64,000 nucleotides of DNA from Nostoc sp. NMS9 (GTDB lineage: Bacteria; Cyanobacteriota; Cyanobacteriia; Cyanobacteriales; Nostocaceae), in contig NZ_JABXKL010000015.1 in the NCBI RefSeq assembly GCF_017114995.1, positions 57,953 through 121,952 of the forward strand, given 5' to 3'. The notes under the pieces were generated by a model. The model made no database searches. It saw only the letters and a list, made by a program, of their open reading frames with translations, and was not told the DNA's origin. Made by a program: the position numbers and the translations under genes. Positions 12,741 through 46,250 of this stretch are shown here, one piece after another. Each line of letters opens with the position of its first letter. The stretch's first letter is position 1.

Positions 12741-13322
12741 ATGTTATTACCGATATTGATTCTGCAATCTAATGTTAACAAATGCTTAAATAATCCAGTT
12801 GACTTAGCCAACCTAAAAGGTTTGAGTACGTGGGTGGGGAAATTGATGGATGCAATTATTGCCCAATTTTGCTACTTACCTGTTGCTGCAACGACCTCTG
12901 AAAAAATCAACTACTTACCAAATTGGCCGCCACTAAATCCAAGTAAGGCATACACTAGCAAGTACGTTTATGTATTTGCCAGTCAGATGCAAAAAAGTCA
13001 GCAGCATTTTCAGGAGATGACTCCGGCAGAAAGACAAGGATTATTAAGACAGCTTAAAACAGATTATAGCCTGATTCTTATAGATTATTTTACTACAGAC
13101 AAAACACTCAAAGATAAAATTGATAAATTTATCAATACTATATTTTATGCTAATATTCCTGTGCCCCAAATAATCGAAATTCACATGGAGATAATTGAAG
13201 AATTTTCTACCCAGCTAAAATTAGAAGGCAGGAGCAATGAAACGTTACTTGATTACCGCCTAACGTTGATCGATATCTTGGCTCACCTGTGCGAAGTCTA
13301 TAGGAGTTCGATATCTAAATAA
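12741..13322 (+). CDS. kaiA: Circadian clock protein KaiA, short form
   Basis: The C-terminal 100 or so residues (LKTDYSLILIDYF..., IPVPQIIEIHMEIIEEF, LDYRLTLIDILAHLCE) are the four-helix KaiA domain that binds the KaiC tail and stimulates its autophosphorylation. The N-terminal pseudo-receiver of Synechococcus KaiA is absent. The open frame from 12741 gives 193 residues. Internal ATG codons at 12987 and 13017 would give 111 and 101 residues, near the length reported for Anabaena KaiA. The first 70 residues show no receiver pattern, but YVYVFASQMQKSQQHF aligns by eye with the linker before the C-terminal domain. The start therefore remains open. kaiB follows after 101 bp. Confidence 0.88.
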   Translation: MLLPILILQSNVNKCLNNPVDLANLKGLSTWVGKLMDAIIAQFCYLPVAATTSEKINYLPNWPPLNPSKAYTSKYVYVFASQMQKSQQHFQEMTPAERQGLLRQLKTDYSLILIDYFTTDKTLKDKIDKFINTIFYANIPVPQIIEIHMEIIEEFSTQLKLEGRSNETLLDYRLTLIDILAHLCEVYRSSISK

Positions 13323-13423
13323 ATTTAAGTTTATCGTTATATATTCAAATTGGAACGAGCTACTTACTCCCAATGCGCCAACAGATCTTGTTATTTTTAT
13401 GCTCATGACTAGCTATTAAGTAT

Positions 13424-13738
13424 ATGATTAAAGCCAGAAAAACCTACGTTCTTAAGCTTTACGTAGCAGGAAATACTCCAAATTCAGTCCGGGCATTAAA
13501 AACACTCAAAGAGATTTTAGAGCAGGAGTTTGAAGGTGTTTATGCTTTAAAAGTGATTGATGTACTGAAAAGCCCGCAACTGGCGGAAGAAGATAAAATA
13601 TTGGCAACGCCAACATTATCTAAAATTTTGCCTCCACCAGTTCGCAAAATTATTGGGGATCTTTCAGATAGAGAAAGAGTGTTGATTGGATTGGATTTGC
13701 TCTATGAAGAACTGAGTGAAGAAGATTTTGAAGAGTAA
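13424..13738 (+). CDS. kaiB: Circadian clock protein KaiB
   Basis: The protein has 104 residues, the full family length, with a thioredoxin-like start ([18 protein letters not shown]), the conserved [20 protein letters not shown] segment and an acidic C-terminal tail. KaiB binds the KaiC CI ring after switching fold and sequesters KaiA, allowing dephosphorylation. It lies 101 bp after kaiA and 76 bp before kaiC on the same strand. All conserved family blocks are intact. Confidence 0.97.
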
Positions 13739-13814
13739 ATTTTTAATCATAAAAAATTGAGTACAAACTTTAGTAATAAAAAAATAGGTTTTAATACCCT
13801 TTTGTTATCAAGCA

Positions 13815-15377
13815 ATGAGTGAAAACGAGCAACTAGAACCAAAGCAACCACCGAAAATTGGGGGTATAGAAAAAATTCGGACGATGATCGAAGGGTTTGA
13901 CGATATTAGTCATGGTGGTTTACCAATTGGTAGAACTACCTTGATTAGTGGTACATCCGGCACAGGCAAAACCTTATTCTCTCTTCAGTTTCTCTATAAC
14001 GGTATTACCTATTTTGATGAAGCGGGAGTATTTGTAACCTTTGAGGAATCACCGAGTGATATTATTAAAAATGCCAATATTTTTGGTTGGAACTTGCCCC
14101 GCTTAATTGAAGAAGGCAAGTTGTTTATTCTTGATGCATCTCCCGATCCAGAAGGTCAAGATATCGTTGGAAATTTTGATCTTTCTGCACTCATTGAGCG
14201 CTTGCAATATGCCATCCGCAAATACAAAGCTAAACGAGTTTCAATCGACTCAATAACAGCGGTATTTCAGCAGTATGAAGCGATGGGAGTAGTGCGACGC
14301 GAAATTTTTCGCCTAGTAGCACGTCTCAAACTACTGAGTGTCACTACTCTAATTACCACTGAACGTAGTGAAGAGTATGGGCCTGTTGCCTCTTTCGGAG
14401 TCGAAGAATTTGTTTCCGATAATGTAGTAATTGTTCGCAACGCTTTAGAAGGAGAACGCCGCCGCCGCACAATTGAAATTCTCAAGTTGCGCGGCACAAC
14501 TCACATGAAAGGTGAGTATCCCTTCACGATTACTAATGAAGGAGTTAACATCTTCCCACTCGGAGCAATGCGCTTGACTCAACGTTCTTCCAATGTCAGA
14601 GTATCTTCTGGTGTCAGAACCTTAGATGAAATGTGCGGTGGTGGTTTCTTTAAAGATTCAATTATTTTGGCAACAGGAGCCACAGGTACTGGTAAAACCC
14701 TGTTAGTAAGTAAATTTATTCAAGATGGCTGCCTCAATGGAGAACAGGCGATATTATTTGCTTATGAAGAATCACGCGCTCAACTATCTCGTAATGCTTC
14801 CTCTTGGGGAATTGATTTTGAAGAATTAGAACATCAAGGTTTACTCAAAATAATCTGTACCTATCCGGAATCAACTGGTTTAGAAGACCACTTACAAATT
14901 ATTAAATCAGAAATTGCTATTTTCAAACCTGCTCGGATTGCCATTGATTCCCTATCAGCACTAGCTAGAGGAGTTACGAATAATGCATTTCGACAGTTTG
15001 TAATTGGTGTGACAGGTTATGCTAAACAAGAAGAAATTACTGGTTTCTTTACCAACACAACCGACCAATTTCTGGGAGCGCATTCGATTACTGACTCTCA
15101 TATTTCCACGATTACCGATACAATTCTGATGTTACAGTACGTAGAAATTCGCGGAGAAATGTCGCGGGCAATTAACGTATTCAAAATGCGCGGGTCTTGG
15201 CATGATAAGGGCATTCGTGAGTATAATATTACTGCTGACGGACCCGAAATTAAAGATTCTTTCCGAAATTACGAACGGATTATCAGCGGTGCTCCTACTC
15301 GCGTTAGTATCGATGAAAAGGCGGAACTTTCTCGCATTGTTAGACGTTTTGAAGACAAACAGAGTTCCGAACCCTAA
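13815..15377 (+). CDS. kaiC: Circadian clock ATPase/kinase KaiC
   Basis: The protein has 520 residues with two RecA-like domains. Walker A motifs are GTSGTGKT (about 46-53, CI) and GATGTGKT (about 290-297, CII). The catalytic glutamate pairs are in TFEESPSD and AYEESRAQ. The phosphorylation pair is Ser431-Thr432 in SHISTITDT, matching Synechococcus numbering exactly. The C-terminal tail that binds KaiA is present. KaiC forms the hexameric core of the clock and sets output through its phosphorylation and ATPase cycle. The stop codon lies within the first of two 27 bp direct repeats that precede hgdD. Confidence 0.98.
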   Translation: MSENEQLEPKQPPKIGGIEKIRTMIEGFDDISHGGLPIGRTTLISGTSGTGKTLFSLQFLYNGITYFDEAGVFVTFEESPSDIIKNANIFGWNLPRLIEEGKLFILDASPDPEGQDIVGNFDLSALIERLQYAIRKYKAKRVSIDSITAVFQQYEAMGVVRREIFRLVARLKLLSVTTLITTERSEEYGPVASFGVEEFVSDNVVIVRNALEGERRRRTIEILKLRGTTHMKGEYPFTITNEGVNIFPLGAMRLTQRSSNVRVSSGVRTLDEMCGGGFFKDSIILATGATGTGKTLLVSKFIQDGCLNGEQAILFAYEESRAQLSRNASSWGIDFEELEHQGLLKIICTYPESTGLEDHLQIIKSEIAIFKPARIAIDSLSALARGVTNNAFRQFVIGVTGYAKQEEITGFFTNTTDQFLGAHSITDSHISTITDTILMLQYVEIRGEMSRAINVFKMRGSWHDKGIREYNITADGPEIKDSFRNYERIISGAPTRVSIDEKAELSRIVRRFEDKQSSEP

Positions 15378-17914: not shown

Positions 17915-17940
17915 AGTCCAAAAGGCAGTATTGTAAATTA

Positions 17941-18060
17941 GACCTCTTGCAAAAGTCCCCTAACACCCCACCCCCAACCCCTCCCCGCAGGCGGGGAGGG
18001 GAGAATTTGACGTAAGTCAAAGGCGGGGTGGGGTTCTTTTTTTGATTTATGCAAGAAGTC
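17941..18060. mobile_element. MITE-like element (120 bp)
   Basis: The ends are imperfect 17 bp inverted repeats (GACCTCTTGCAAAAGTC and GATTTATGCAAGAAGTC, 14 of 17 matching) flanked by TA on both sides. The centre contains a strong GC-rich stem of CCCCTCCCCGC and GCGGGGAGGGG. The core also occurs at 37426-37460 within a different element. No coding capacity. Confidence 0.65.
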
Positions 18061-18332
18061 TATTGTGATTTTTTAGAAATCCTTTAGCGATCACTAAAGG
18101 ATAAGAGTCTATAGAACCCATTTGATATCTTTTTTCTAGCTAGCAGCTAGTCTTCTGAGCATCAATCTGATAAAACAAAGCTTGAGCTTGGCATTGGCAC
18201 GAGCGAGTGTCCGGTCAAAATTTTTGACTAAACTTTTTTTGCTTTACTTTATTAAATTTAGGTGTTACTACTGAATAGTAGTAATGCTATGTCATGCAAT
18301 TTATTCTCTATAAATAAAATTAGTTGCCCATT
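18061..18332. promoter_or_regulatory. Upstream region of the caspase operon
   Basis: These 270 bases hold no gene. They must contain the promoter of the three-gene operon starting at 18333. A TATAAAT-like box lies at about 18309-18315, close to the start, but no -35 element was clear. Confidence 0.35.
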
Positions 18333-18539
18333 ATGGTCAAACCTCAAATAGTTGTCAGGCTACCTCTGCATCTATTAGAAAAGCTTAACAACTATGCTCA
18401 AAAAACAGGCACATCAAAGACTGACGTGGTGGTTGGCGTTTTAGCACAGTATTTAGGGTGCACTGAGACTGTACCACTAAATCAAAGGTTAGCAGAGCTT
18501 GAATTTAAAGTTGCGGCAATAGAAGAAAAAGTCAATTAA
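18333..18539 (+). CDS. Small ribbon-helix-helix-like protein
   Basis: The protein has 68 residues from the ATG at 18333; a TTG at 18324 would add three. The sequence VKPQIVVRLPLHLLEKLNNYAQKTGTSKTDVVVGVLAQYLG is a beta strand followed by two helices, the pattern of CopG/Arc-type DNA-binding proteins, with the strand IVVRLP and the helix start TSKTDVV. A short C-terminal coiled coil (NQRLAELEFKVAAIEEKV) may extend the dimer. It is the first gene of an operon with the Pepco-like protein (26 bp gap) and the caspase fusion, so it is a plausible autoregulator. Confidence 0.65.
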   Translation: MVKPQIVVRLPLHLLEKLNNYAQKTGTSKTDVVVGVLAQYLGCTETVPLNQRLAELEFKVAAIEEKVN

Positions 18540-18565
18540 ATCTGAGGAGTAAATTAACAAATCTT

Positions 18566-18955
18566 ATGACAGCAGAAATATCAACTCCTGAAAAAATTTG
18601 GATTATTACCGAAGAAGCTGAAGCTACAGCTAGTCATGAAACTACAATTACCAGAGGCGCTAGAGGGAGTAGTGACATAGGAGGACGGCTCGGTGCAGAA
18701 ATAACAGAAACAACTGAAGTTAGTATCACTCGACGAAAAGCAATTGAAGTAAGCAAACTCAAGCAGGAAATGAAAGGGTTTCTGCAAGCAATGAAAGAAA
18801 CGCTTGACGAAGCAGACCAGCCGGATTCTAAAATGCAACTTGACGAAGTAGAGCTATCAGTAGAAATTAACGGAGAAGGGCAAATTAGCCTATTTGGAAT
18901 TGGTGGCAAAGCAGGGGGGAAAGGTGCAATGACCTTCAAGTTCAAGCGTAAATAA
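18566..18955 (+). CDS. Pepco-like small protein (effector-associated constant component)
   Basis: The protein has 129 residues with no signal or membrane segment. It begins with EKIWIITEEAEA, has a middle helix (SKLKQEMKGFLQAMKETL) and ends with a beta-rich glycine stretch (LDEVELSVEINGEGQISLFG, then GGKGAMTFKFKR). This layout resembles the small constant components (Pepco, and more distantly Trypco) described beside caspase- and trypsin-type effectors in bacterial conflict systems. It lies 13 bp before the caspase gene, which fits that role. The family match was made by eye and is moderately uncertain. A GAGGAG lies 16 bases before the start. Confidence 0.6.
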   Translation: MTAEISTPEKIWIITEEAEATASHETTITRGARGSSDIGGRLGAEITETTEVSITRRKAIEVSKLKQEMKGFLQAMKETLDEADQPDSKMQLDEVELSVEINGEGQISLFGIGGKAGGKGAMTFKFKRK

Positions 18956-18968
18956 CAAGCATTTTAAA

Positions 18969-21900
18969 ATGGGTAAAAACTGGGCGATTGTAGTTGGAAT
19001 AAATAATTACGATAACCTTCAGCCGTTGAAGTATGCTAAACGCGATGCTGAAGCGATGATGGCTTGGTTTGGAAATGAAGCCAACTTTGACCAAGTTTTT
19101 CTATTTACTGAAGATTCGCCTGCCATAAAAACCAATCCTCCAATACCAACTCAACCGACTCAAGGTCGTTTTAAGCGATTTTTGAATGCACAGTTTGAAA
19201 ATCCGCTGCTCAAACCAGAAGATAATTTGTGGTTCTTCTTCGCTGGTCATGGTAAACGTTATATAGACCAAGATTATCTGATGTTTTTGGATAGTGACCC
19301 AACAGATTATACAACAGCAATTTCTGTAGAGTTTATAACACAAAGGTTACGGCGCTGTGGAGCAGATAATGTAGTTTTGTTGATAGATGCTTGCCGTGAT
19401 GAAGGCGATCGCTCTGGATTAGGCGTAGGTATACAGGAACATAAAGGAGTTATTACCTTTTATTCCTGCACTGCCAACCAAAAGTCTTGGGAGATAGATG
19501 AATTACAACATGGATCGTTTACCTACAGTCTATTAGAAGGATTGCGAATTCAGGGAGAGGCAAATTGTGCGACAGTGGAGCGTTTAGATCAACATCTGCG
19601 TTACAGAGTTCCCCAAACAAATGTTGATTATAAAAAGCCCATACAAAATCCGGCTTTCAAGGCAGAGCCACCGTACAAGATGTATTACATTTTGCTAGAA
19701 CAATATGCCAGAATCAGAGATGTAGAACCATTAAAGTATCAAGCGTCTTTAGCTGAAAATGAGGGAGATTTAAATTTAGCAGAGCAATTATGGCTCAGAG
19801 TTTTAGCAGTATCTCGTGTTGATAGAGATGCAATTAGGGCTATTGGAAGGATTGTTTTACGTCAACGAGGAGTCCGAGAATTTACTTCCTCAATTTCTGA
19901 GCCTGTTACTTTATTAACAGGAGATAGAGCAGTTATTTCTGAATCAGAAGCTGCTACATCTATACCAATTGAGACAACCCAACAATTACAATTGACTAGA
20001 ACAAAAGAGGAACATCAATATAAATTAGCTAATTTTCAGCAAGCTTTTCAGAGATTTTCTAACAAATTACTTAATAACATTGTTAGAGTCCCAGAACTCT
20101 GGATACTAATATTTTCTGCAAGAACTGATAGGACGGAGGTGTTGCGTGCTATCTTGCCTGCATGGTATCCAAAAGCCTTAACTTGGTTTGTTTATAGTAT
20201 TAGTGGTGTAACTGTACTGTCAACGCTAATGATTGGCATTGAATGGCTGAAATTTTCGGTGAAACCTTTACCTATATTAGGTTCATCAGTGATTATTTAC
20301 GCCCGTGATGGAAGTACACCGCTACGAGCTTCTCAAATTCACGTTAACATGAAGCGTTTAGAAGATTTTAGTCCTTATCTGCCATCTGCAATAATTAGCT
20401 CAAAGGATAACGGTTATTACTGGCACTTTGGTGTTGATATATTGAGATTTTTACAAGGTTTATTAGTGAATAATAGTGAGAATGCTCAATCAAGTTATCA
20501 AACACTAACTCAACAAGTTGCTCGCAATTTATTCAGTGATTATATTGGCAAACAAAATTCTTTTGGGAGTAAGCTACGAGAAGCAATAGTTGCTTTGAAG
20601 TTAGAAACTTTTTACAGCAAAGATGAAATATTATTGATCTATTTAAATCAAGTAAAATTGGGTGAAGATACCTACGGTTTTGAGGATGCAGCGCAGTATT
20701 ACTTTTATAAGTCGGCTAAAGAATTAACGCTCTCCGAAGCAGCAACCTTGGTAGGAATTTTAACTGCTCCCAACGCTTTCAATTTTTGCGGAGATGGCCC
20801 CAATAAGTTAGAACCAGGTGAATACCGCAATCGCGTAATTAAGCGGATGGTGGAGATAGGCAAAATCAAACTAGAGGAAGCGAACCAAGCCAGGCGCTCA
20901 ACCATAAAAATCAGTCCCCAGGTCTGCGAACAGCAAGCCAAGACGATCGCTCCTTATTTTTATAATTACGTCTTCCAAGAACTCCAATCAATCTTAGGGC
21001 AAGAAGCTGCGAAGGAAGGTAACTATATCATAGAGACGCAACTCGATCCAGCGATACAGAGCCAAGCGGAAGCAGCCTTGCGTAATTCGGTGAACAACGC
21101 TGGCTCAACTTTTGGTTTTTCTCAAGGAGCAGTGATCACCCTTGATTCTACTACTGGTAGCATCCTGGCTATGGTAGGCGGAACTGATTATAAAAAAAGT
21201 AAGTTAAATCGTGCTGTCCAAGCTAAAAGACAACCAGGTACAACCTTCAAAATCTTTACCTATACCGCCGCTATCCAGCAGGGGATTCCAGCATCAAAAA
21301 CTTATTCTTGCGCTCCCTTAACTTGGCAAGGTTTTACTTATAAACCTTGTCGTGCTGGTGCTGACGCTAGTTTCGATATTGCCACCGGACTTGCTCTTTC
21401 AGAAAATCCGATCGCTTTGCGTGTTGCTAGAGAAATCGGGTTGGATAAAGTAGTATCGATGGCGCAGCGTTTGGGAATAAAATCATCGCTCGATCCGGTT
21501 CCTGGATTAGTACTGGGTGAAAGTGTAGTAAATGTTTTAGAGATGACTGGTGCTTTCGGCGCTATTGGCAATCGCGGTGTATGGAATCAACCTCATGCAA
21601 TTAGTCGGGTACTAGATAGTAGTGATTGCAAGGATCGCAACGATATCAACACCTGCCGTGTCATCTATTCGTTTGACCAAGACCCAGACGCTAACAAACG
21701 AGTTTTATCAAATGAAGTAGCCGATGAAATGACCTCTTTAATGCGCGGAGTCATAACAAGGGGTACTGGTCGCACGGCTGCCATTGGACTAGGGGAGGCT
21801 GGCAAAACCGGTACAACTAATAATAACGTTGACTTATGGTTTATTGGCTTTATCCCCAGTCGGCGGCTTGTGACTGGTGTTTGGCTGGGAAATGATAATA

Positions 21901-21974
21901 ATTCTCCCACCTCTGGTAGTAGCGCTCAACCAGCTCAGTTATGGGGAAATTATATGAGGAGAATTACAAGGTAA
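18969..21974 (+). CDS. Caspase-class A penicillin-binding-protein fusion, PBP part apparently inactive
   Basis: The protein has 1001 residues. Residues 1-240 are a peptidase C14 (caspase) domain with His94 in FFAGHGK and Cys142 in IDACRDE. A helical linker follows (240-400), then one transmembrane helix (about 403-428), then a region matching class A PBPs. In the GT51-like part (about 435-640) the catalytic Glu of the usual ED..(F/Y)..H.G.D motif is Lys479 (SKDNGYYWHFGVD). The second Glu is kept as Glu538, and TLTQQVARN and YSKDEI are kept. In the transpeptidase-like part (about 690-1000) the SxxK motif reads T758-T-F-K761. SEN (811-813) and KTG (946-948) are kept. The predicted topology puts the caspase in the cytoplasm and the PBP outside. 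This suggests a wall sensor controlling a protease; a Thr nucleophile retaining activity cannot be excluded. It is the last gene of the operon. Confidence 0.85.
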   Translation: MGKNWAIVVGINNYDNLQPLKYAKRDAEAMMAWFGNEANFDQVFLFTEDSPAIKTNPPIPTQPTQGRFKRFLNAQFENPLLKPEDNLWFFFAGHGKRYIDQDYLMFLDSDPTDYTTAISVEFITQRLRRCGADNVVLLIDACRDEGDRSGLGVGIQEHKGVITFYSCTANQKSWEIDELQHGSFTYSLLEGLRIQGEANCATVERLDQHLRYRVPQTNVDYKKPIQNPAFKAEPPYKMYYILLEQYARIRDVEPLKYQASLAENEGDLNLAEQLWLRVLAVSRVDRDAIRAIGRIVLRQRGVREFTSSISEPVTLLTGDRAVISESEAATSIPIETTQQLQLTRTKEEHQYKLANFQQAFQRFSNKLLNNIVRVPELWILIFSARTDRTEVLRAILPAWYPKALTWFVYSISGVTVLSTLMIGIEWLKFSVKPLPILGSSVIIYARDGSTPLRASQIHVNMKRLEDFSPYLPSAIISSKDNGYYWHFGVDILRFLQGLLVNNSENAQSSYQTLTQQVARNLFSDYIGKQNSFGSKLREAIVALKLETFYSKDEILLIYLNQVKLGEDTYGFEDAAQYYFYKSAKELTLSEAATLVGILTAPNAFNFCGDGPNKLEPGEYRNRVIKRMVEIGKIKLEEANQARRSTIKISPQVCEQQAKTIAPYFYNYVFQELQSILGQEAAKEGNYIIETQLDPAIQSQAEAALRNSVNNAGSTFGFSQGAVITLDSTTGSILAMVGGTDYKKSKLNRAVQAKRQPGTTFKIFTYTAAIQQGIPASKTYSCAPLTWQGFTYKPCRAGADASFDIATGLALSENPIALRVAREIGLDKVVSMAQRLGIKSSLDPVPGLVLGESVVNVLEMTGAFGAIGNRGVWNQPHAISRVLDSSDCKDRNDINTCRVIYSFDQDPDANKRVLSNEVADEMTSLMRGVITRGTGRTAAIGLGEAGKTGTTNNNVDLWFIGFIPSRRLVTGVWLGNDNNSPTSGSSAQPAQLWGNYMRRITR

Positions 21975-22272
21975 ATCAAAAATACGTACGGCATCTAAAA
22001 CTTTTTAAATAGAGTCTATATCAACTGCTAGATGTCTTTTGATCCCATTTGTTGCTTTGTAAAAACAAAACCCTTTGGATTCAATGCTGGCATTACAAGT
22101 GTTTTTTACTGCTTGTGAGTCAATCATTATTAGGGTTGTCCACTGCGGTTTTTTTTACTTGTTCGCGCACCCTACCATGCAACTTGGTCGTATTGGACTT
22201 AACAGAGAAGCGCTATAGTCAAATTTGGATTAACATAACTGAGTGTTCGATCGCTTGCCTTGTCAAAGACTC
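21975..22272. other. Intergenic stretch after the caspase operon
   Basis: An imperfect inverted repeat (gcatcta near 21996 and tagatgtc near 22031) followed by tttt may end the operon transcript. A 75-codon open frame at 22049-22276 lacks protein character. Nothing else is recognised. Confidence 0.4.
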
Positions 22273-42889: not shown

Positions 42890-44239
42890 TCACAGTCGTT
42901 GAGCAAAACCTTGTAGTACTAAATTATTAGGAGTAACGGCAGTCACTTTTTCAAAATCCCACTTGACTTCTGTAATTGAGTCCCATTGATAGTTGTGGAA
43001 CAGATGTAAACAGAAAATTTTGATAAAGCCAATTGATAAGGATTTACCAGGACAAGCTCGTTCATGCCCTTCGCCATTCCAAGATAAAATATCTGAAAAA
43101 TTTCGTATTAGGTCAAAATTATCTGGATTTTGATATCTATTGGTATCCCGATTAGCTGTAAGAATAGAGCCAAGCAAGCGAGTACCTTTTTGGAATGGAC
43201 ATTTTTGTTCTCCAATCTCAACTTCACCCGCTTCAGTGGTGAGTTGGCTAACAAATCGCACAGGTGGATAGAGACGAGCCGTTTCTAGAATCACCTGATT
43301 GAAAAGTGTTAACCGTTCTAGAGCGTCTGAGTCTAAAGTTTTCTTGCCATTCCAGACTGCATTAATTTCTGATACTACATGATTTCTAAGAGTATTATCC
43401 AAGCAGAGAACACCAATAACAGATCCCAAAAGCGCACTTGTGCCGGCAGTACCAGCGATATGAATCATATCGAAAAGGCTATTAGCGATTTGGTGTTCGT
43501 TCAACTGATACTGAGCGCCTGTTTCAAAGTAAGATGCCCATTTAGCCGATTGTTTATATCGCTTAGTTAAATATTGACGATGCCGAATTTTTGGCGCTGT
43601 TAATATTGCCAGCAGATACTTGCTTATAAAGTTAGGTAAGGATGCGAGAGCCAAACCTTTAATGTAACTACTTGATGCTGTGATTTCGTCTTCAGATAAA
43701 GATATCTGAAAAACTAGTTGATGCAAAATCGACAGCATGATCTTTGGCAAATCGTTGCCGATGTGTAATTTACCCTGTCTAGCAGCCTCTAACAGGCTTT
43801 GCTCAACTAAATCCCCTAAAAAGTCTATCTGCTCTGACGGTTCCGGTAAGGCTTGTAAAAACACAGCACGTAGTCCTGTGTGTTCGTTACCGTTTGTTCC
43901 CAAGCTCAGAGGATTATCCAGCAGGTAGCTAGGAGCTAATATTCTGATGATGCCTAAATCATTTCCTCGCAGTTGTGGTTGGGTTTGCATTAGTTCTCTC
44001 ACCTGCGAGTGAGAGGAATGCATAATTGCTTGGTCTACTGCAAAATACTTGTCTCCAATATTATCCTTACGGATATAGAGAAAGTCCCGCCATGCATTGA
44101 GTATGATTGATGCATCTGTGTAATAAAAAATCAAGCGTAGAAACTTGCCGATCGCAGTGTCGTAACCTACTTTAGCTAGTATAGGTGCAAGCCAAAGCTG
44201 GCGATCGTGACCTTTGAGGATTTTATCTTTAAGTGTCAT
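42890..44239 (-). CDS. Cytochrome P450
   Basis: The protein has 449 residues without a membrane anchor. The haem-binding Cys is at about residue 396 in WNGEGHERACPGKSLSI, a variant of FxxGxxxCxG. The I-helix reads MIHIAGTAGTSALLG, lacking the usual acid-Thr pair, and the ExxR motif is in ILETARLYPPVRF. Loss of the I-helix acid-alcohol pair is typical of P450s that rearrange peroxides rather than activate oxygen. The lipoxygenase gene lies 118 bp upstream on the same strand, so this enzyme probably acts on its fatty acid hydroperoxide product; this is inference. Confidence 0.82.
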   Translation of the reverse strand: MTLKDKILKGHDRQLWLAPILAKVGYDTAIGKFLRLIFYYTDASIILNAWRDFLYIRKDNIGDKYFAVDQAIMHSSHSQVRELMQTQPQLRGNDLGIIRILAPSYLLDNPLSLGTNGNEHTGLRAVFLQALPEPSEQIDFLGDLVEQSLLEAARQGKLHIGNDLPKIMLSILHQLVFQISLSEDEITASSSYIKGLALASLPNFISKYLLAILTAPKIRHRQYLTKRYKQSAKWASYFETGAQYQLNEHQIANSLFDMIHIAGTAGTSALLGSVIGVLCLDNTLRNHVVSEINAVWNGKKTLDSDALERLTLFNQVILETARLYPPVRFVSQLTTEAGEVEIGEQKCPFQKGTRLLGSILTANRDTNRYQNPDNFDLIRNFSDILSWNGEGHERACPGKSLSIGFIKIFCLHLFHNYQWDSITEVKWDFEKVTAVTPNNLVLQGFAQRL

Positions 44240-44249
44240 AGTATTTATT

Positions 44250-44302
44250 TTGAGTCATTTGTCATTGGGCATTGGGCATTGGGCATTTGTCATTGGGCAT
44301 TG
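44250..44302. repeat. Heptamer repeat (cattggg)n
   Basis: Six copies of cattggg-type heptamers separate the P450 and lipoxygenase genes. They match words seen at 8716-8760. Confidence 0.8.
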
Positions 44303-44357
44303 GAAAGAGACAGGAAGCAATTTGTTCAATAATTTCCCTTGTCCCCCAGTTCCCAAT

Positions 44358-46250
44358 TCAAATATTGATGCTCTGAGGAATTTTAGAAGGAAGCAGATAC
44401 TCATAGGTTGGACGGTGCAAATTACGTTGCTTGATGGTATCTTCTACCTGCTGAAGATTACTCTGGAATGCTTGTAACAATGGTTTTACTTTTTGGTCTG
44501 TAAAGTATCCTTGCTGATAATCGCCCAGCTTGTTATAGTACACAGATCCCAATAAGCTGAGTAGGTTGTATTGCCGTTGTACCTGATCTAAGGGAGGGAG
44601 CAAATTAAGGTAGTCTTGCTCAGTAACTTCTCTTTTGAGAGTTGAGGCTGGTAAATAACCTGCCATTGGAATCGCTGCGGCGTAGCTCATAAAATCTTTT
44701 TGCGGAAAGTTAACCGCAGCGTGTTGAGCGCTGGCAGTGAAAATAATCAGCGTAGTGGCATCAATTAGGTAATTGCGCGTTTTGATGCTTCCATCTTCGC
44801 CAAAATCGGGGATGCGACCACCATCGTAAGCTGAGATTTCGGCTGCCCACGCTTGCAATGCTCTGTCTTTTTGAATGTCTTCATCCGTGGTGTAGTATAG
44901 GTTCAGGTAGTCCCAAACCCATTGATGAATGGCATCCCAGACTATTAGGGCATCATCCCGGTAAGGATAAACAGGTAAGAGATTGGGATCGTCTACACCG
45001 CGCTGTTGGAATTGCTTAGGTAAGATGGCGCTGTTAAAACCATAGCTTTGTAATCCTAGGACTGCTAAAACGCGAGAGTTGTCGATTGATGATGAGAGTA
45101 ATCTATCGACACCACCGCCTGGAGCTATGAGAATACGTTGAGCGGCATCGTTAATTGCTAAAGTGCTGTCAAAATGCGGGTGCAGTAGAATTCTTAGGGG
45201 ATGGGTGAGTGGCAGTTGTCGAGCTGTGGCGATCGCAAATACACCAACTAAGAGGTGAGTTCTTGCTAGGTGAGTAACAGGTTCGTGGAAGTTGGCATCT
45301 GCTATTTGCACTACTGTTTTGGCAAAAAGCCAAGAGTATTTACCGGAGTTAGGGGTAACGATCGGATAATCTGGGATTGGGGTTTGACCGCATTGAATGG
45401 CTATCGGACGCAATAGACGGGTGGGGTCTGAGCCTTTGGGTAAGGCAAACAGTGCTAGGGGAGCATAGAGATATTTTTGCTCGTGTGGGAATGTACCGTT
45501 GATCGCACCATCTAAAATTTTATAATCAGCTAAGTAGAGCCTGCCTTCAAGTCCGGCTGCTGCTAATGAATCGTCAGTTCCCATTACTCCTTGGTAATGT
45601 TCGTCTGTGACTGGGAAGCGATCGCCTGGAGTCGTTACTCGCTCGATCATCACGGGATTGTAGCCAGCGACTCTCATGTAGGCAAATACTTCATCTTCTT
45701 GGTAAGTTTTAGCGATCGCTGGCACACCAATCACCGGAAACAAATTTTCGTAGTCCTTGAGACTGGTTGCATGTCCTGTAGGCTGTCCTTCATATAGAAG
45801 GTTAATTATCCTATTGAGAGCATCTCTGAGGATCACAAGCCCGTTTTCTTTCAGAATAGAATAAAAAAGATCGTCGAGTTCTCTAAGATCCTTAGATATG
45901 CCATTGAGCAAAAACTGAGGGATAATTTGCAAGATTCTTGCCAGAATACTGATTTTTACTGGTACTGCTCCCTTGAGCAAGGCTTCTAAAATAAACCTTT
46001 TTACATCATCACGAATCGATTTAGAACCTTGATTGCCTCTGTTGACAATCAAGGTATTGATAAACACAACTCGTAACTGCTGGGCTAATAAAAAATACCA
46101 GTTAGTGGTGAACTCTTCGGCAATAGAAAGCCGATCTAGCATCGCAATAGATGGAATATGGATGTAGTTATATTGATACTCTCGCCTAGCTATATCTAAA
46201 GTATGAGTACTTGATGAGCTGATTGAATTTTCTGGTGATGAAGCAGTCAT
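44358..46250 (-). CDS. Lipoxygenase
   Basis: The protein has 630 residues, comprising the catalytic domain without a PLAT domain, as in other cyanobacterial enzymes. Iron ligands are visible: HEPVTHLARTHLL (His at about 326 and 331), SAQHAAVN (His at about 509 and Asn at about 513) and the C-terminal Ile630. WLFAKTVVQIADANFHE matches the conserved core. It should dioxygenate polyunsaturated fatty acids such as linoleate or alpha-linolenate to hydroperoxides. It is followed on the same strand by a P450 of likely hydroperoxide-processing type, so the two probably make an oxylipin. The regiospecificity cannot be read reliably. Confidence 0.93.
   Translation of the reverse strand: MTASSPENSISSSSTHTLDIARREYQYNYIHIPSIAMLDRLSIAEEFTTNWYFLLAQQLRVVFINTLIVNRGNQGSKSIRDDVKRFILEALLKGAVPVKISILARILQIIPQFLLNGISKDLRELDDLFYSILKENGLVILRDALNRIINLLYEGQPTGHATSLKDYENLFPVIGVPAIAKTYQEDEVFAYMRVAGYNPVMIERVTTPGDRFPVTDEHYQGVMGTDDSLAAAGLEGRLYLADYKILDGAINGTFPHEQKYLYAPLALFALPKGSDPTRLLRPIAIQCGQTPIPDYPIVTPNSGKYSWLFAKTVVQIADANFHEPVTHLARTHLLVGVFAIATARQLPLTHPLRILLHPHFDSTLAINDAAQRILIAPGGGVDRLLSSSIDNSRVLAVLGLQSYGFNSAILPKQFQQRGVDDPNLLPVYPYRDDALIVWDAIHQWVWDYLNLYYTTDEDIQKDRALQAWAAEISAYDGGRIPDFGEDGSIKTRNYLIDATTLIIFTASAQHAAVNFPQKDFMSYAAAIPMAGYLPASTLKREVTEQDYLNLLPPLDQVQRQYNLLSLLGSVYYNKLGDYQQGYFTDQKVKPLLQAFQSNLQQVEDTIKQRNLHRPTYEYLLPSKIPQSINI

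What the first reader, a model, noticed from the sequence alone, without database searches (positions are those of the whole stretch)
18969..21974. Caspase fused to a class A PBP whose glycosyltransferase and transpeptidase active sites both look disabled
The caspase dyad (His94, Cys142) is intact. The fused PBP1-like region keeps its fold motifs, but the catalytic Glu of the GT51 motif is Lys479, equivalent by eye to E. coli PBP1b Glu233, and the transpeptidase SxxK motif reads T758-T-F-K761. SEN and KTG are kept. A single membrane helix separates a cytoplasmic caspase from a periplasmic pseudo-PBP. Inference: the PBP part binds lipid II, peptidoglycan stems or beta-lactams and signals wall damage to the protease, giving a wall-integrity or phage/antibiotic-triggered death module.
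Basis: partly seen in the sequence, partly recalled or inferred. Interest (0 to 1): 0.88.

Follow-up and report, generated by a model that had tools for sequence, protein, structure and literature searches.

The report
Caspase fused to dead cell-wall synthase
In a Nostoc-like cyanobacterium, a caspase from a suspected immune module is fused to a membrane cell-wall synthase whose two active sites are broken, as if the enzyme had been turned into a sensor or bait; two further fusions of this synthase arose separately and each also lost an active-site residue.

Summary
The 1001-aa protein has an intact caspase dyad (H94/C142), one membrane helix and a class A PBP in which K479 replaces the GT51 glutamate and T758 the transpeptidase serine; 229 of 229 unfused relatives compared keep both.

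Here the slot holds a Nostocales FHA-regulated PBP. An ordinary copy survives elsewhere in the genome; the module is an insertion that the relatives examined lack. The same PBP family was captured independently by an EACC1-type caspase (R534Q in a GT motif) and an AAA_35 NTPase (K761N in SxxK): 3 of 3 capture lineages lost an active-site residue, against 0 of 229 unfused. A sister of the window's fusion keeps the GT glutamate but its ORF ends early. The glycosyltransferase evolves fast but not neutrally; the transpeptidase is near normal apart from its nucleophile.

Best reading: a pseudo-PBP used for perception (ligand sensor or bait) by a membrane caspase. A decaying chimera is the main rival. 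Function is untested.

The parts
17931..22185 (.). Inserted segment between the TolC-like gene's terminator and a conserved 135-aa ORF; carries the module
   Evidence: Empty site: window 17930|22186 corresponds to 845|863 in L146; both flanks align in 7 of 8 fetched relatives, and none of the 8 matches the module
18333..18539 (+). 68-aa ribbon-helix-helix-like small protein, possible regulator of the module
18566..18955 (+). Pepco (PF24393), constant partner of this caspase family; ends 13 bases before the caspase start
   Evidence: 112.8 bits, cut-off 27; Pepco present at 48 of 57 distinct caspase places, the window included (overlap)
18969..21974 (+). Caspase - helical linker - TM - pseudo class A PBP, 1001 aa
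18978..19664 (+). Caspase (Peptidase_C14) domain, residues 4-232, with H94 (19248-19250) and C142 (19392-19394)
20040..20141 (+). Possible remnant of the N-terminus of the FHA-PBP (residues 358-391); no FHA domain is left
   Evidence: Local score 49 against shuffles 25.0 +/- 4.5, 1 of 500 as high; for sister P0230 the best local alignment fell elsewhere, so suggestive only; no FHA match in Pfam
20184..20240 (+). TM helix, residues 406-424, aligned with the TM stretch of unfused relatives
20343..20849 (+). GT51 domain, residues 459-627, degenerate (E479K at 20403-20405, R482G, S511Q, R534S at 20568-20570)
21126..21932 (+). Transpeptidase domain, residues 720-988, with S758T (21240-21242); K761, SEN and KTG kept
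18100..18300 (-). Degenerate piece that looks like the C-terminal end of an IS5-like transposase
   Evidence: Six-frame translation; family recognised by eye, no tool named it
21990..22180 (-). Degenerate piece that looks like the middle of the same kind of transposase
   Evidence: Six-frame translation; family recognised by eye, no tool named it

Best explanation
This is a Pepco-caspase conflict (immune or self-killing) module whose exchangeable C-terminal slot has been filled with a class A PBP of the Nostocales FHA-PBP family. The PBP has lost both catalytic residues but kept its fold, so it most likely serves as the perception part: it sits in the membrane with its PBP domains in the periplasm. 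Either a cell-wall ligand (lipid II, glycan strand, stem peptide) or an attacker's protein that normally engages PBPs binds it, and this changes the state of the cytoplasmic caspase, with Pepco as the constant partner that restrains or relays. The activated caspase then cleaves proteins in cis or trans and stops or kills the cell. Shown: architecture, gene pairing, slot swapping, loss of active-site residues, three independent captures, insertion. Inferred: loss of activity, topology, perception role, Pepco's role, outcome.
For: Pepco at 48 of 57 distinct caspase places. The C-terminal domain is swapped among close caspases: by my count of the 120 rows listed (of 1566 hits), FGE 93, Amidase_3 6, Transgly 1, GTPase 1, WD40 1, PF19962 1, none precomputed 17 (some of these short or partial); one of the closest relatives carries GUN4, TIR_2 and EAD1, an effector-associated domain of conflict systems. 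FGE/C-lectin domains are read as antigen sensors in related systems (PMC10907252, passages; PMC7517822, passages). Three capture lineages, in three separate places of a 49-row PBP tree, each lost an active-site residue against 0 of 229 unfused (Fisher p 4.9e-7, relatedness ignored, positions partly chosen after seeing them). On the P0001 branch omega is 0.16 for GT and 0.10 for TP. The genome keeps an intact FHA-PBP at C55, so the copy was free to change.
Against: No ligand, complex or phenotype. The sister P0230 keeps the GT Glu and ends before GT motif 3, which fits decay as well. Omega is averaged over time before and after inactivation. P0123 and P0124 each lost only one of the 13 positions. 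Kaur et al. read the slot of the comparable system as effectors, not sensors (PMC7159879 section 33). The sibling amidase tail gives weak support: 5 of 7 distinct caspase-amidases keep the catalytic Glu, and an unfused amidase of the same genome also has Gln there (L139).
Confidence: 0.5

Rival explanations
1. Decaying chimera: a chance fusion put a redundant PBP copy behind a working Pepco-caspase; only the caspase matters, and the PBP part is drifting away.
For: GT evolves fast: 32 sites that are invariant in 20 unfused sequences changed in GT (169 sites in all) against 7 in TP (269 sites). P0001 and P0230 share 284 of 290 residues in the caspase but 56 of 96 at 431-526. P0230 stops before GT motif 3. 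An intact paralogue exists.
Against: The frame stays open to the end of the PBP; branch omega 0.10-0.16; the TP domain is almost unaltered apart from the nucleophile; three independent captures with the same kind of loss.
Confidence: 0.27
2. Address label: the dead PBP takes the caspase to sites of wall growth or septa by binding divisome or elongasome partners or nascent glycan, and the signal comes from elsewhere, for example Pepco.
For: TP fold kept under constraint; another caspase-fold membrane protein, HetF, is a divisome component in Anabaena and interacts with FtsI (PMC8406250, title, abstract start and passages).
Against: HetF is a CHAT protein and only an analogy; targeting permits but does not require loss of both active sites.
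Confidence: 0.13
3. Effector: the PBP is the toxic end, released or triggered by caspase self-cleavage to act on the wall, as proposed for C-terminal domains of EACC1 systems.
For: PMC7159879 section 33 reads the slot that way; a sibling locus carries a wall amidase in the slot with the residues recalled as zinc ligands kept, and 5 of 7 caspase-amidases keep the catalytic Glu.
Against: Both catalytic residues are lost here, and a PBP is not a hydrolase. A dominant-negative effect remains possible.
Confidence: 0.1

Closest known systems
EACC1-caspase two-gene membrane conflict system (Kaur et al. 2020, PMC7159879, section 33)
   Same: Small constant 5' gene plus a caspase with up to 50 alternative C-terminal domains, a third or more with TM helices, in organisms with a multicellular habit.
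   Different: The constant partner here is Pepco; the caspase scores 57.8 against the cut-off of 140 for the EACC1-type model; 'penicillin', 'transglycosylase' and 'amidase' occur 0 times in that paper's main text.
EACC2-caspase systems (PMC8195603, passages)
   Same: Constant small domain with a caspase and a variable, sometimes extracellular, C-terminus.
   Different: EACC2 is fused in front of the caspase; Pepco is a separate gene here. Whether Pepco and EACC2 are related was not tested.
Cyanobacterial orthocaspases with FGE-sulfatase/C-lectin tails
   Same: Close caspases in the same gene pair carry FGE in the slot.
   Different: The survey of 473 cyanobacterial orthocaspases lists 35 accessory Pfam domains, none a GT51, transpeptidase or Amidase_3 (PMC8283722, section 15 with Table 1).
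Nostocales FHA-regulated class A PBP (FHA-GT51-transpeptidase)
   Same: Residues about 395-1001 are up to 82% identical.
   Different: The caspase stands in place of the FHA domain; the GT Glu and the TP Ser are lost.

Membership tests
Caspase / orthocaspase (Peptidase_C14) | Domain match and His-Cys dyad | tested here: met
   76.4 bits, cut-off 21.4; H94 and C142 in 121 of 121. Proteolysis not tested
EACC1-caspase conflict system | EACC1-type caspase | tested here: not met
   NF047832 57.8 bits against cut-off 140; the other fusion P0123 passes with 161.8
EACC1-caspase conflict system | EACC1 gene upstream | tested here: not met
   The upstream gene is Pepco and matched no other Pfam family at E 0.001
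Pepco-caspase pair | Pepco gene directly upstream of this caspase family | tested here: met
   13 bases apart; same arrangement at 48 of 57 distinct places by presence of Pepco, 40 of 49 loci on the same strand within 400 bases
Functional class A PBP | GT51 catalytic Glu of motif 1 | tested here: not met
   K479; E in 229 of 229 unfused
Functional class A PBP | SxxK serine nucleophile | tested here: not met
   T758; S in 229 of 229 unfused
Functional class A PBP | Fold of GT51 and transpeptidase | tested here: met
Anti-phage defence system | Protection against phage | not testable with these tools
   PADLOC names only 'caspase' (PDLC02987)
Integrated decoy (as in plant NLR-IDs; concept recalled) | Fused copy of a host protein with lost catalytic residues and kept fold | tested here: met
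   loss of activity itself not measured
Integrated decoy (as in plant NLR-IDs; concept recalled) | An attacker's molecule that binds the domain | not testable with these tools
   none known to me

The most novel reading that the evidence does not exclude
Bacterial immune receptors carry integrated decoys: a membrane cell-wall synthase that phages or competitors attack has been captured repeatedly (by a Pepco-type caspase, an EACC1-type caspase and an AAA_35 NTPase), stripped of catalysis, and used as bait that triggers a caspase or NTPase, in parallel with plant NLR integrated domains.
Probability: 0.2. Interest if true: 0.88.

Novelty: new variant of a known kind. Interest (0 to 1): 0.74.

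Why it matters
If right, a bacterial caspase reads the state of the cell wall, or of its synthases, through a repurposed dead enzyme: a direct link from wall attack to regulated death in multicellular cyanobacteria. The repeated capture of one PBP family by unrelated conflict modules, each time with loss of an active-site residue, gives a testable signature for finding sensors or decoys by comparing fused and unfused copies of one gene.

Tried and rejected
Rejected: misalignment of K479/T758 (solved PBPs and 229 relatives agree). Rejected: assembly chimera (P0230 has the same junction). Rejected: the own C55 paralogue as direct donor (P0001 groups with G214/P0003, support 97/85). Rejected: one shared origin of the three fusions (three places in the tree; P0230 was not in that tree). 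Not supported: general inactivation of amidase tails; of 7 distinct caspase-amidases (L110 equals P0132) 2 lost the catalytic Glu (P0122 Asp, P0131 Gln) and 5 keep it. Of the six other Amidase_3 matches of the genome, four show Glu there (L133-L135; L137, a match with one stop), L139 shows Gln and L138 was not resolved, so Gln alone is no mark of fusion. Not supported: a Pfam name for the gene before P0123 (I took it for EACC1 by its place and look). No plasmid record carries the fusion: in 0 of 533 matching records did one place cover 80% of the query.

Literature: searches (open-licence library) gave no listed paper on a caspase-PBP fusion or on Pepco with caspases; I saw the listings of the top rows and passages or sections of six papers (PMC7159879 section 33 and passages; PMC8195603, PMC10907252, PMC7517822, PMC8406250 passages; PMC8283722 section 15 and passages), no whole paper and no supplements.

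Limits of the counts: P0002 (the window's own protein) and P0112 (99.9% identical to P0124, a piece of that fusion) were dropped from the unfused set of 229; still counted P0112 among its 228. The unfused set comes from the best hits plus two genome copies, so it leans towards conserved sequences. The 13 positions were chosen partly from recall and after R534 had been seen. The loci (30; 49) overlap at 22 places. The search was meant to favour long proteins; among its 120 listed rows P0002 is the only caspase fusion. The listing is cut and shows other kinds of fusion only by frame length, so further fusions in its 217 genomes are not excluded.

Full report
WHAT IS THERE. The ORF 18969-21974 (+) encodes 1001 aa. 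Pfam finds a caspase (4-232), GT51 (459-627) and a transpeptidase (720-988), each above cut-off. One hydrophobic stretch lies at 406-424 and aligns with the membrane stretch of unfused relatives, so the caspase should be cytoplasmic and the PBP periplasmic (inference from class A PBP topology). The caspase His94 and Cys142 are the same in 121 of 121 sequences.

WHERE THE PIECES COME FROM. Apart from the protein itself (P0002), the 120 hits listed for the whole protein are FHA-GT51-transpeptidase proteins of 739-761 aa or FHA-less pieces of them (two of 617 and 629 aa). In 217 genomes of the family, among the listed rows only the window's protein matches residues 1-1001; the others match from about 384-397 (a few from 316) to the end (list cut). 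The window's genome keeps an ordinary 757-aa FHA-PBP at C55 with intact residues. The fused PBP groups with G214/P0003 rather than C55, on a long branch (0.25, sisters 0-0.011). A stretch at 358-391 resembles the N-terminus of FHA-PBPs (1 of 500 shuffles as high), which suggests that the fusion first took the whole FHA-PBP and then lost most of it up to the membrane; the same test on P0230 aligned elsewhere.

A GENE PAIR WITH AN EXCHANGEABLE TAIL. Thirteen bases before the caspase start ends a Pepco gene (PF24393). Pepco is present at 27 of 30 caspase loci from a genome search (the window's own included) and at 41 of 49 from a scan of named genomes; 22 places are shared, which makes 48 of 57 distinct places. 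Of 388 genomes of the order 112 have a Pepco match. A 68-aa ribbon-helix-helix-like gene precedes Pepco and recurs at about 10 places (15 hits in 70 partly overlapping loci). Homologues 70-100% identical to the sibling caspase P0122 carry different tails: FGE in 93 of the 120 listed rows, Amidase_3 in 6, GT51, GTPase, WD40 and PF19962 in one each, none precomputed in 17 (my count). One of the closest relatives of the window's caspase (L065) carries GUN4, TIR_2 and EAD1, an effector-associated domain. The window's genome has a second Pepco locus whose caspase bears an N-acetylmuramoyl-L-alanine amidase. Its catalytic Glu position (Glu in Nostoc 5emi-type enzymes) is Asp; one other caspase-amidase has Gln and five keep Glu. 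Among the six other Amidase_3 matches of the genome four show Glu, one Gln, one was not resolved. The amidase therefore supports slot swapping towards the wall, but only weakly the loss of catalysis.

REPEATED CAPTURE AND LOSS. Two more fusions of this PBP family turned up. P0124 (G023) is an AAA_35 NTPase in front of a whole FHA-PBP, with K761N in SxxK; a patatin-AAA_35 gene lies upstream. The three fall in three places of the PBP tree. At 13 active-site positions, 3 of 3 capture lineages depart and 0 of 229 unfused do (Fisher p 4.9e-7, relatedness ignored, positions partly chosen from recall). Against a simple story: P0123 keeps the GT Glu and the Ser; and P0230, the sister of the window's fusion, keeps the GT Glu, has R482G, and ends at residue 533, before GT motif 3, so 10 of the 13 positions are absent. 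Whether that end is real or an assembly edge is unknown.

SELECTION. By three-way NG86 distances the P0001 branch has omega 0.16 in GT and 0.10 in TP; unfused pairs average 0.042 (maximum 0.087) and 0.064 (maximum 0.155). So GT is relaxed or adapting, yet not neutral, and TP is close to normal. Between P0001 and P0230 the caspase (1-290) is 284/290 identical and residues 431-526 only 56/96. The averages include time before inactivation.

INSERTION. In 17 of the 23 other genus genomes searched, the TolC-like gene and the PSII S4 gene lie on one contig, 1.5-3.2 kb apart (my reading of the coordinates; in the other six they were on different contigs or one was missing); here they are 5.9 kb apart. 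The cleanest empty site (L146) places the insert at 17931-22185. Of 8 regions fetched, both flanks align in 7 and none matches the module; two (L145, L151) have about 1.6 kb of other DNA there with an FkbM-type methyltransferase ORF. Pieces that look like an IS5-type transposase flank the module on the minus strand (recognised by eye).

HOW IT MAY WORK. The published comparison is the EACC1-caspase two-gene system: a small constant gene and a caspase with up to 50 alternative C-terminal domains, read there as effectors freed by self-cleavage (PMC7159879, section 33). Others read FGE/C-lectin domains in related systems as diversified antigen sensors (PMC10907252, passages) and note orthocaspase domains in front of such variable domains (PMC7517822, passages). 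A PBP that lost both catalytic residues but kept its fold fits perception, ligand or bait, better than attack. I put perception at 0.5, decay at 0.27, address label at 0.13, effector at 0.1.

NOVELTY. The kind of system is known. A class A PBP, or an amidase, in the slot is not among the 35 accessory domains of the published orthocaspase survey (PMC8283722, section 15) and did not appear in the listings of searches. New variant of a known kind.

Noticed in passing
L031:284-2552 (G000:C35): Second Pepco-caspase locus of the same genome, with an Amidase_3 tail whose catalytic Glu position is Asp.
   Followed up: yes
L028:9041-13511 (G013): EACC1-type caspase with long coiled repeats fused to an FHA-family PBP (R534Q), preceded by a 138-aa gene without a Pfam name.
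   Followed up: partly
L029:9142-14331 (G023): AAA_35 NTPase fused in front of a complete FHA-PBP whose SxxK lysine is Asn; the neighbouring gene is patatin-AAA_35.
   Followed up: partly
L065:1290-4256 (G165): Close relative of the window's caspase with GUN4, TIR_2 and EAD1 in the slot.
   Followed up: partly
L139 (G000:C68): An unfused Amidase_3 match of the same genome has Gln where the catalytic Glu is expected.
   Followed up: no
window 12741-15377: kaiA, kaiB and kaiC clock genes lie upstream of the TolC-like gene next to the insertion.
   Followed up: no
L145:1252-2031 and L151:2828-3607: Two relatives carry other DNA with an FkbM-type methyltransferase ORF between the same two genes, so the site may be a hot spot for insertions.
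   Followed up: partly
window 42890-46250: Cytochrome P450 beside a lipoxygenase on the minus strand, a possible oxylipin pair.
   Followed up: no
P0176: A relative of the caspase carries a GTPase tail (PF01926, PF00350 precomputed).
   Followed up: no
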